From the NCBI GenBank assembly GCA_024277875.1, contig JAJRUI010000045.1, positions 1-33,222 on the forward strand: 33,222 nucleotides of DNA, written 5' to 3'. The notes beneath the pieces were generated by a model. It saw only the letters and a program-made list of their open reading frames with translations. It searched no databases and had not been told where the DNA came from. This stretch comes from Deferrisomatales bacterium (GTDB lineage: Bacteria; Desulfobacterota; Deferrisomatia; Deferrisomatales; Deferrisomataceae). Positions 31,449 through 33,222 of the stretch are shown here, piece after piece. How positions within the stretch are numbered: position 1 is the stretch's first letter; each line of letters begins with the position of its first letter. Position numbers and translations under genes: made by a program.

Positions 31449-31970
31449 TTGCCCCAGACCGACACGGACAGACCGCTGGGCGACTGGATCGCTGCCCTTG
31501 CCGGCTCCTCCCCCACCCCGGCCGGGGGCGCCCTCGCCCTGGTCACCCTGGCAGGCGCGGCCGCCCTGGCCGCCAAGCTCGCCCGGCTGGCCGGCGACCA
31601 CGACCCGGACCGCCACCGGGAGCGGGCCGACCGGTTCTTGCGCGCCGCCGGCGACGACGCCCGGGGGTACGGGCCGGCGGCCAGGCGGGGCGGGGCCGCG
31701 GCCCGGGCGTTCCTCGGCCAGGGGCTGGCCCAGGCCGAAGCAGCCGTCGCCCTCCTGGACGACCTGGCGGGGCTCGGCCCGCGGGTCCCGGCTCCGGCCC
31801 GTCCCGACGTGACGGCGGCTGCCGGGCTCGCCCGCGAGGGCGCCCGGGTGCTGGTGGCGAACCTCCGGGCCAACCTGGACGCGTGGGCCCCCCGCCTGGC
31901 CCCGGCCGGGCCGCTCGCCGAACGGGTGGCCGGCCTGGAAGCGCGCCTGGCCGGTCCCGGCACCGGTTGA
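31449..31970 (+). CDS. Cyclodeaminase/cyclohydrolase (FTCD C-domain) family protein
   Basis: A 173-residue, mainly helical protein of the formimidoyltetrahydrofolate cyclodeaminase family. The N-terminal signature SSPTPAGGALALVTLAGAAALAAKLARLA matches the family's PTPGGGS block (written here as PTPAGG with Ala for the middle Gly), followed by Ala-rich helices. The usual product deaminates formimino-THF or hydrolyses methenyl-THF in one-carbon metabolism. TTG 31449 is supported by GGAG seven bases upstream. No other folate gene is near. The trpS promoter -35 overlaps its stop codon. Substrate assignment is tentative because this short, Ala-rich version is divergent. Confidence 0.75.
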   Translation: MPQTDTDRPLGDWIAALAGSSPTPAGGALALVTLAGAAALAAKLARLAGDHDPDRHRERADRFLRAAGDDARGYGPAARRGGAAARAFLGQGLAQAEAAVALLDDLAGLGPRVPAPARPDVTAAAGLAREGARVLVANLRANLDAWAPRLAPAGPLAERVAGLEARLAGPGTG

Positions 31971-31996
31971 CACGGACCGGCGGTTCCCGGTATACG
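31967..31996 (+). promoter_or_regulatory. Sigma-70 promoter of the trpS leader transcript
   Basis: A perfect TTGACA (31967-31972) and TATACG (31991-31996) separated by 18 nt. The predicted start, near 32003, is only about 3 nt before the leader-peptide ATG, so the leader may be translated from an almost leaderless RNA. Confidence 0.8.
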
Positions 31997-32005
31997 GTCG
32001 GGCCC

Positions 32006-32092
32006 ATGACGACGCATACACAGGCTTCCACGACTTCCGCTTGCGCCGGCTGGTGGTGGCGGACCCCGCACGGAGGGGCCCGGACGGCGTGA
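32006..32092 (+). CDS. Trp-rich leader peptide of trpS
   Basis: A 28-codon ORF, starting MTTHTQ and containing GWWWR at codons 15-19, where Trp16-Trp18 are three consecutive TGG codons (32051-32059). Such Trp runs are the hallmark of ribosome-mediated tryptophan attenuation (as in trpL). It lies between a strong promoter and a terminator hairpin 148 nt before trpS. Scarce charged tRNA-Trp would stall the ribosome at these codons. No Shine-Dalgarno sequence is seen; the ATG lies almost at the predicted transcript start. Confidence 0.78.
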   Translation: MTTHTQASTTSACAGWWWRTPHGGARTA

Positions 32093-32152
32093 CGTGGAAG
32101 CGAAGACGCCGGCTGCGGGCTCGGGTCCGCGGCCGGGGCGACCGGGCCGCGG
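32059..32152 (+). promoter_or_regulatory. Attenuator pairing segments (1:2 and 2:3) of the trpS leader
   Basis: Segment 1, GCGGACCC (32059-32066), begins at the last base of the third Trp codon and pairs perfectly with segment 2, GGGTCCGC (32123-32130). The overlapping segment CCGCGGCC (32127-32134) pairs perfectly with segment 3, GGCCGCGG (32145-32152), over a 10-nt loop. Segment 3 is also the 5' arm of the terminator. A ribosome stalled on the Trp codons would cover segment 1, free segment 2 to pair with 3 and prevent termination. Confidence 0.75.
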
Positions 32153-32182
32153 GGTCCCCCCAAGGGAACCGCGGCTCTTTTT
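32146..32182 (+). terminator. Intrinsic terminator of the trpS attenuator
   Basis: GCCGCGG (32146-32152) pairs with CCGCGGC (32169-32175), with a further TCCC/GGGA inner stem and a small bulge, and is followed by TCTTTTT. It ends 58 nt before the trpS ATG, in the untranslated leader, so it acts on trpS itself. Confidence 0.82.
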
Positions 32183-32240
32183 CGTCCGACAAACAGGCCG
32201 CGCCCCGCCCCCCCCGGCCGGGCGCAGGAGGAGACCGCGC

Positions 32241-33209
32241 ATGAAACGGGTCCTTTCGGGCATCCAGCCCTCCGGGGCGCCCCACATCGGCAACTACTTC
32301 GGGATGATGCGCCAGATGGTCCGCTACCAGGAACAGGCCGACCTGTTCGCGTTCATCGCCAACTACCACGCGATGACGTCCCTGGAGGACGGCGGGGCCC
32401 TGGCCAGGGGCACGTTCGACGTGGCGGCCGCGTTCCTGGCCCTGGGCCTCGACCCGGACAAGGCCACGTTCTGGGTCCAGTCGGACGTGCCCGAGGTGCA
32501 GGAGCTGACCTGGGTGCTCTCGACGATCGCGCCGATGGGCCTGCTGGAGCGGTGCCACTCGTACAAGGACAAGGTGGCCAAGGGGATCCAGCCCAACCAC
32601 GGCCTGTTCGCGTACCCGGTGCTGATGGCCGCGGACATCCTGCTGTACGGCGCCCACGTGGTGCCCGTGGGCAAGGACCAGAAGCAGTACCTGGAGGTGA
32701 CCCGGGACCTGGCCGTGAAGTTCAACCACCTGTACGGGGACGTGCTGGTGGTGCCCGAGCCCGAGATCGACGAGGACCTGGCCGTGATCCCGGGCACCGA
32801 CGGCCAGAAGATGTCCAAGTCCTACGGAAACACCATCGATATCTTCACGACGAAAAAGATGCTCAAGAAGGCGGTGATGTCGATCGTGACCGACGCCACC
32901 CCGATCGAGGAGCCCAAGGACCCGGACCGGTGCAACCTGTTCGCCCTGTACCGCCTGTTCACCACCCCGGACGAGCTGGCCGCCCTGCGGGAGCGCTACC
33001 TGGCCCCGGGCATGAAGTACTCGGACGTGAAAAAGGAGCTGGTGGAACGGATCTGGACGTTCTTCGGGCCCCACCGGGACCGGTACCAGTGGTTCCAGGA
33101 CCACCCGGACGACGTGCGGGACATCCTGCGGGCCGGCGCGACCAAGGCCCGGGCCGCGGCCGCGCCGATCCTGGACGCGGTGCGCAGCCGCACCGGCCTG
33201 GTGTACTGA
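32241..33209 (+). CDS. trpS: Tryptophanyl-tRNA synthetase
   Basis: A 322-residue class I aminoacyl-tRNA synthetase that charges tRNA-Trp. It has SGIQPSGAPHIGNYFG (HIGH-type motif HIGN at about 15-18) and KMSKS (190-194) in DGQKMSKSYGN, the two ATP-binding signatures, plus the substrate-pocket GVMAADILLYGAHVVPVGKDQ-like stretch (LMAADILLYGA, PVGKDQKQYLE). ATG 32241 is chosen over an upstream in-frame ATG at 32094 because AGGAGGAG lies just before it and the upstream residues are part of the leader RNA, not protein. Its expression is expected to respond to charged tRNA-Trp through the upstream attenuator. It is nearly at the window's right edge. Confidence 0.97.
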   Translation: MKRVLSGIQPSGAPHIGNYFGMMRQMVRYQEQADLFAFIANYHAMTSLEDGGALARGTFDVAAAFLALGLDPDKATFWVQSDVPEVQELTWVLSTIAPMGLLERCHSYKDKVAKGIQPNHGLFAYPVLMAADILLYGAHVVPVGKDQKQYLEVTRDLAVKFNHLYGDVLVVPEPEIDEDLAVIPGTDGQKMSKSYGNTIDIFTTKKMLKKAVMSIVTDATPIEEPKDPDRCNLFALYRLFTTPDELAALRERYLAPGMKYSDVKKELVERIWTFFGPHRDRYQWFQDHPDDVRDILRAGATKARAAAAPILDAVRSRTGLVY

Positions 33210-33222
33210 CCGCGGCCGGCCC

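What the first reader, a model, noticed from the sequence alone, without database searches (positions are those of the whole stretch)
31967..32241. Complete-looking ribosome-mediated Trp attenuator upstream of trpS
Seen in sequence: TTGACA/TATACG promoter, a 28-codon ORF with three consecutive Trp codons, segment 1 immediately after those codons pairing perfectly (8 bp) with segment 2, segment 2 alternatively pairing perfectly (8 bp) with segment 3, and segment 3 forming the terminator stem followed by TCTTTTT. This is the E. coli trp-leader logic applied to an aminoacyl-tRNA synthetase. pheM-pheST is a known synthetase precedent for Phe; in Gram-positive bacteria trpS is normally under a T-box. 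I do not know of a described trpS leader peptide of this kind, though I cannot search.
Basis: partly seen in the sequence, partly recalled or inferred. Interest (0 to 1): 0.87.

Follow-up and report, generated by a model that had tools for sequence, protein, structure and literature searches.

The report
Tryptophan leader-peptide attenuator controlling trpS
[quoted passage not shown] the readable relatives of its family have it too, and it would likely switch the enzyme on when charged tryptophan tRNA runs short, a kind of control already reported for trpS in Streptomyces.

Summary
In detail: promoter-like boxes (31967-31996), a 28-codon ORF with Trp-Trp-Trp (32006-32092), alternative GC-rich stems, a terminator-like hairpin plus TTTTT (32144-32182), then trpS (32241-33209). 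Dinucleotide shuffles rarely give the stem chain (1, 3 and 0 of 3000 for the window and two relatives). The 3 readable family genomes (window included) have it; two are another genus (TrpS 74-75% identical) with a different leader peptide (MD..LLPFWWWRWRTRDPRGRPA); the fourth has matching flanks around a run of N. I read it as a ribosome-mediated Trp attenuator, unreported in this lineage as far as my paper searches reach. It is not a new kind: trpS attenuators are predicted in Streptomyces (PMC1262725), reported in S. lividans (PMC8079986), and named in the title of Vecchione and Sello 2010. The leader ORF starts 9 nt after the -10 box, so it is probably leaderless. The same genome's trpE also has a WWW leader.

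The parts
31967..31972 (+). -35-like box TTGACA
   Evidence: sequence; TTGAC[A/G]-18-TATNNN-8/9-ATG geometry, boxes picked by eye, also in L003, L004, L005, L006 and the trpE leader L039; not experimentally mapped
31991..31996 (+). -10-like box TATACG, 9 nt before the leader ATG
   Evidence: sequence; promoter scan did not list it
32006..32092 (+). leader peptide ORF, 28 codons, MTTHTQASTTSACAGWWWRTPHGGARTA*, predicted leaderless
   Evidence: relatives L004 and L006
32051..32059 (+). three tandem Trp codons (predicted stall site)
32076..32090 (+). segment A, between Trp codons and stop; pairs with 32106-32122 in the stalled-ribosome model
   Evidence: not better than shuffles
32109..32120 (+). 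segment B; 12-bp stem with 32125-32136
32123..32136 (+). segment C; pairs with B, with segment 1 or with D
32144..32153 (+). segment D; pairs with C (antiterminator) or E (terminator)
32169..32177 (+). segment E; 3' arm of the terminator
32178..32182 (+). TTTTT tract of the terminator
32226..32233 (+). AGGAGGAG, Shine-Dalgarno-like site of trpS
   Evidence: sequence
32241..33209 (+). trpS, tryptophanyl-tRNA synthetase, 322 aa
   Evidence: TIGR00233 291.2 bits against a cut-off of 176.75; PF00579

Best explanation
The region 31967-32182 carries a short ORF with three consecutive Trp codons and a chain of alternative stems ending in a terminator-like hairpin, and it is likely a ribosome-mediated transcription attenuator that would raise trpS transcription when charged tRNA-Trp is scarce. 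Shown: the sequence elements, their recurrence in a second genus, and the rarity of the stem chain in shuffles. Inferred: transcription starts at the leader ATG or a few nt before it, so translation begins on a leaderless mRNA. With enough Trp-tRNA the ribosome reaches the stop codon (32090-32092) and covers segment A (32076-32090); B then pairs with C, D with E, and transcription stops before trpS. When Trp-tRNA is short the ribosome stalls at 32051-32059, covers segment 1 and leaves A free; A pairs with B, C pairs with D, the terminator cannot form in time, and trpS is transcribed. More TrpRS would then restore charging, closing a feedback loop. The stated confidence is for Trp attenuation of trpS; the five-segment detail (A:B freeing C) is the least certain step, about 0.3.
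For: WWW leader ORF plus terminator and T-tract in the 3 readable genomes of the family (window, L004, L006); the fourth (L005) shows promoter, leader start and terminator around a run of N. Leader peptides differ (28, 25 and 25 codons) but keep WWW. Stem chain (8 bp or more) in 1, 3 and 0 of 3000 shuffles. In the aligned relatives B:C and D:E are mostly kept in L004 and L006, with U-G to C-G and G-U to G-C changes. WWW ORFs of at most 45 codons occur in 4 of 131 trpS upstream regions read (at least 150 nt), all 4 with a terminator-like hairpin: the three above and L077 of a distant family. Folding with the ribosome masked, averaged over three transcript ends just after D: C:D pairs with a stall at Trp against ribosome at stop are 6.93 vs 3.25 (window), 7.95 vs 2.62 (L006), 9.82 vs 5.24 (L004); the same procedure on E. 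coli trpL (L168; segment limits recalled) gives 2:3 pairs of 10.5-10.6 vs 4.6-4.7. The same genome's trpE carries MRDTTANTAAAIAHGQSLTGWWWPLFRG* followed by two terminator-like hairpins.
Against: No expression data. Segment A is not distinguishable from chance: 51, 58 and 30 of 200 base shuffles, and 42, 85 and 25 of 200 codon shuffles (window, L006, L004), do as well. The terminator is in the minimum-energy fold in 15 of 15 ribosome settings of the three trpS leaders and usually dominates once E is out, so any switch is kinetic. Some settings reverse the contrast: window Trp1 at D+2, L006 Trp2/Trp3 at D+4, and it vanishes in L004 at footprints +15 and +16; when the terminator loop has emerged, L006 shows B:C 0.67-0.98 with a stall but C:D 0.98 with the ribosome at stop, and L004 at stop shows C:D 0.88. 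L003 breaks most aligned B:C pairs. Most of the order lacks it: of the 8 held genomes outside the family none has a WWW leader at trpS. Only two genera support it.
Confidence: 0.9

Rival explanations
1. Classical four-segment attenuator exactly as in E. coli trpL: a ribosome stalled on Trp codons masks segment 1 (32059-32066), freeing segment 2 (32123-32136) to pair with segment 3 (32144-32153). This is a rival only on the pairing logic, not on attenuation.
For: The two stems exist; segment 1 starts at the last base of the third Trp codon and would be covered in a stall at Trp2 or Trp3.
Against: The 12-bp hairpin 32109-32120:32125-32136 can form before segment 3 is made and is out of reach of a ribosome on the Trp codons (B:C probability 0.75-0.90 when C has just emerged with a stall at Trp1-3).
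Confidence: 0.3
2. The five-segment chain works in the other genus, and the window's copy is a weakened or decaying version.
For: The other genus has longer, palindrome-rich segments (CCGCGG in A to D) and a fourth nearby Trp codon; the sister-family relative L003 has one Trp codon and a poor T-tract.
Against: The window's stem chain, Trp codons and T-tract are intact.
Confidence: 0.1
3. Not regulatory: a chance short ORF in GC-rich DNA followed by the terminator of the upstream FTCD-like gene, with trpS transcribed from elsewhere.
For: Overall fold stability is ordinary; GC-rich DNA gives many stems; an upstream ORF ends at 31970.
Against: Recurrence in another genus with a different upstream neighbour (tRNA-Ala), conserved WWW, chain rarity.
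Confidence: 0.04
4. A T-box or another known RNA element senses tRNA-Trp directly.
For: T-boxes control most synthetase genes in Firmicutes (stated in PMC1262725, passage read).
Against: No Rfam family at gathering score in the window; at E up to 5 only SECIS_3, asR3 and BcKCsr2, all far below threshold.
Confidence: 0.01

Closest known systems
Streptomyces trpS attenuators: Seliverstov 2005 PMC1262725 (passages read), S. lividans trpL2-trpS PMC8079986 (passages read), Vecchione and Sello 2010 (title only, in the reference list of PMC4787780)
   Same: Leader peptide with Trp codon(s) before trpS; alternative hairpins; leaderless leader in S. lividans
   Different: Another phylum; three tandem Trp codons against one in S. 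lividans TrpL2; a T-tract is present here, none was found after trpL2; here trpS is the only copy found in a 92%-complete genome, while the Vecchione and Sello title calls theirs auxiliary and antibiotic-resistant
E. coli trp operon leader (trpL)
   Same: Tandem Trp codons, terminator and antiterminator, ribosome position decides (model control)
   Different: Target is a synthetase, no room for a Shine-Dalgarno site before the leader ORF, an extra strong stem between leader stop and terminator
E. coli pheM-pheST (pheM recalled; the pheST attenuator is mentioned in PMC1262725)
   Same: Attenuation of an aminoacyl-tRNA synthetase gene by its own amino acid
   Different: Phe instead of Trp; sequences not compared here
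Caulobacter crescentus small leader CDS before trpS (PMC4117421, passages read)
   Same: Small translated ORF on the trpS mRNA
   Different: No attenuator structure for trpS described in the passages that I read
trpE leader of the same genome (L039)
   Same: TTGACG-18-TATCCT-8-ATG, WWW, GC-rich terminator-like hairpins
   Different: Two tandem terminator-like hairpins; stop codon 24 nt after the start of the Trp codons against 39 nt

Membership tests
Ribosome-mediated Trp transcription attenuator | Short leader ORF with tandem control codons | tested here: met
   WWW in the window, L004 and L006
Ribosome-mediated Trp transcription attenuator | Intrinsic terminator with U-tract before the structural gene | tested here: met
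   32144-32182; hairpin energies -26.8 to -31.7 kcal/mol before the T-run in the window, L004 and L006. The simple scan missed it; termination itself not measured
Ribosome-mediated Trp transcription attenuator | Antiterminator mutually exclusive with the terminator | tested here: met
   C:D shares D with D:E; chain rare in shuffles
Ribosome-mediated Trp transcription attenuator | Conserved in relatives | tested here: met
   3 of 3 readable family genomes, fourth partly N; 0 of 8 held genomes of the order's other families have WWW at trpS
Ribosome-mediated Trp transcription attenuator | Ribosome position decides the fold | tested here: inconclusive
   Mean contrast points the right way in all three sequences but depends on footprint and transcript end, reversing in some, and segment A is not better than shuffles
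Ribosome-mediated Trp transcription attenuator | Read-through rises on Trp-tRNA limitation | not testable with these tools
   needs a reporter
E. coli four-segment trpL layout | Segment 2 free to pair with 3 once segment 1 is masked | tested here: inconclusive
   12-bp stem B:C competes
Rfam Trp_leader (RF00513, accession recalled) | Match to the covariance model | tested here: not met
   no match at gathering score or at E up to 5
T-box | Match to a T-box model of Rfam | tested here: not met
Leaderless mRNA | Transcription start at or within a few nt of the ATG | tested here: inconclusive
   -10-like box (picked by eye) 8-9 nt before the ATG in 6 of 6 leaders of this order compared; L077 not among them; no 5' mapping

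The most novel reading that the evidence does not exclude
A five-segment Trp attenuator on a leaderless leader ORF: a stalled ribosome acts by leaving segment A free rather than only by covering the first segment, so that an untranslated leader would read through (default ON) instead of terminating as in E. coli trp, and in this genome it yokes the only trpS found and trpE to the same tRNA signal.
Probability: 0.3. Interest if true: 0.55.

Novelty: new member of a known kind. Interest (0 to 1): 0.42.

Why it matters
It extends Trp-codon attenuation of a tRNA synthetase gene to Deferrisomatales (Thermodesulfobacteriota), shows the device distributed patchily (own family, a one-Trp relative in the sister family, one distant genome), and offers a testable alternative pairing logic in which absence of leader translation would give read-through.

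Tried and rejected
Orientation error: read the genome-search loci as if all were oriented with the gene; minus-strand loci (L005, L008 to L013 and others) were wrong there and were redone. A coordinate slip of one base (32007 for 32006) was corrected from its own output. Whole-leader fold stability gave no evidence. Alignment A1 included the mis-oriented L005 and was dropped. A2 includes L005 with Ns and L003; its C:D column with a gap in L004, L005 and L006 is an alignment effect in my reading. The five-segment logic was tested by shuffling segment A and did not pass.

Survey rows: 131 trpS upstream regions of at least 150 nt (104 after dropping L103, too short, plus 27, of which 8 had failed the orientation step). 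L007/L038 and L073/L165 are the same places, so at most 129 are distinct. They are not all of the 240 of 247 genomes with a match: I fetched 60 stretches beside the loci already held, and one search's own list was cut. L079 was rejected because its WW ORF seems to lie within the upstream coding region in another frame (my reading). The other W..W hits were not inspected one by one; none has three Trp codons in a row. In the family of G124 the L077 leader stands alone among the loci fetched: 0 of 19 others, out of 28 of 31 genomes with a match; the other genome of its genus (G260) has trpS cut at the contig start and was not testable.

Papers: search listings only (36, 59 and 60 returned 0 papers); passages of PMC1262725, PMC8079986, PMC4117421 and PMC4787780. 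PMC2897330 is not held. My statement that no trpS attenuator is in print for this lineage rests on the zero results and on the titles listed, in a library that lacks most subscription journals.

Full report
What is there. The window is contig C22 of a 2.98-Mb draft genome. trpS lies at 32241-33209 (TIGR00233). The only other match in the genome is a 153-residue piece at the end of contig C18, 98.7% identical over 475 nt to the end of this contig, which looks like an overlapping contig or strain variant, so trpS seems single-copy (genome 92% complete). Before it come TTGACA, an 18-nt spacer, TATACG, a 9-nt gap, the 28-codon ORF with Trp-Trp-Trp, and a chain of GC-rich stems ending in a hairpin and TTTTT.

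More than chance. Shuffling the stretch between leader stop and T-tract (dinucleotides kept) gave the full chain B:C, C:D, D:E with stems of 8 bp or more in 1 of 3000 (window), 3 of 3000 (L006) and 0 of 3000 (L004); with 7 bp or more in 11, 12 and 13 of 3000. Overall stability, in contrast, is ordinary (z -0.83), and the simple pattern scans did not list promoter or terminator.

Relatives. The family has four held genomes, the window's included. Two of another genus, L004 and L006, have MDTMVSLLPFWWWRWRTRDPRGRPA* and MDATTPLLPFWWWRWRTRDPRGRPA*, then the same kind of chain and CTTTTTCG. L005, of that genus too, reads N from just after the leader start to just before segment C, but its promoter, leader start and terminator match. 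The neighbour upstream differs: an FTCD-like gene in the window, a tRNA-Ala facing away in that genus. In the sister family, L003 has the same promoter geometry, a 20-codon ORF with one Trp codon (my reading) and a hairpin with a poor T-tract; L007 to L013 show no WWW leader. Across 131 trpS upstream regions, WWW ORFs occur in 4, the fourth being L077 of a distant family (MTIEQTKNIQLYWWWRSN*, followed by a hairpin and TTTTTGTTTTT); the 19 other loci fetched from its family lack it.

Mechanism. It is far from the Trp codons and would capture segment C unless B is taken. Folding the RNA from 13 nt past the A-site codon on, at the moment D has emerged, favours A:B plus C:D with a stall at Trp and mostly B:C with the ribosome at the stop codon, in the three sequences (means). 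A control on E. coli trpL gives the expected switch. Results against: shuffling the bases or codons of segment A gives as good a value in 12.5-42.5% of trials; some footprints and transcript ends weaken or reverse the contrast; once the terminator loop has emerged, L006 shows the opposite (B:C with a stall, C:D with the ribosome at stop), and with a footprint 3 nt further L004 at stop favours C:D; and the terminator is in the minimum-energy fold in 15 of 15 settings of the complete trpS leaders. I therefore hold attenuation as very likely and the five-segment detail as a working model. Without any ribosome the model gives C:D 0.89, 0.72 and 0.99 when D has emerged (window, L006, L004) but D:E 1.0 once E is out, so the default-ON prediction is untested and rests on kinetics.

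Leaderless start. In six leaders (window, L003, L004, L005, L006 and the trpE leader L039) the geometry is TTGAC[A/G]-18-TATNNN-8 or 9-ATG (boxes picked by eye), leaving no room for a Shine-Dalgarno site. This is a prediction.

Regulon. trpE of the same genome (L039) has a WWW leader and two terminator-like hairpins. trpE of the other genus (L040, L041) shows no WWW ORF within 600 nt; G002 gave no trpE match. A search for TGGTGGTGG followed at 95-125 nt by TTTTT in the 12 genomes of the order found the trpS and trpE leaders of this genome and the trpS leaders of G001 and G003 (G002's is in the N run); I took the remaining matches as chance without inspecting them one by one, and control counts with the reversed pattern were of the same order.

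Comparison with what is known. Attenuators before trpS are predicted in Streptomyces (PMC1262725), a leaderless Trp leader before trpS is listed in S. lividans (PMC8079986), a small leader CDS before trpS is seen in Caulobacter (PMC4117421), and the title of Vecchione and Sello 2010 states ribosome-mediated attenuation of an auxiliary TrpRS gene. The finding is thus a new member of a known kind in a new lineage; no Rfam family covers it.

Noticed in passing
L039:1199-1285 (trpE upstream, G000 contig C87): trpE of the same genome has a WWW leader peptide and two tandem terminator-like hairpins; trpS and trpE leaders share the 15-mer CCGGCTGGTGGTGGC around the Trp codons.
   Followed up: partly
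L077:1172-1320: Isolated trpS WWW leader with a strong terminator-like hairpin in a distant family; absent from the 19 other loci of that family that were fetched.
   Followed up: partly
window 32748-33222 and the end of G000:C18: Two contigs of the draft genome overlap by 475 nt at 98.7% identity in the 3' half of trpS; probably a strain variant or unjoined contig.
   Followed up: yes
L040, upstream of the trpE start: An inverted repeat (CCAAGTTGCGTTCAAA ... TTTGAACGCAACTTGG) precedes trpE in the other genus; in L041 only the right arm is recognisable.
   Followed up: no
L003:1329-1391: Sister-family ORF before trpS with only one Trp codon and a hairpin with a weak T-tract, perhaps a degenerate or early form of the attenuator.
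   Followed up: partly
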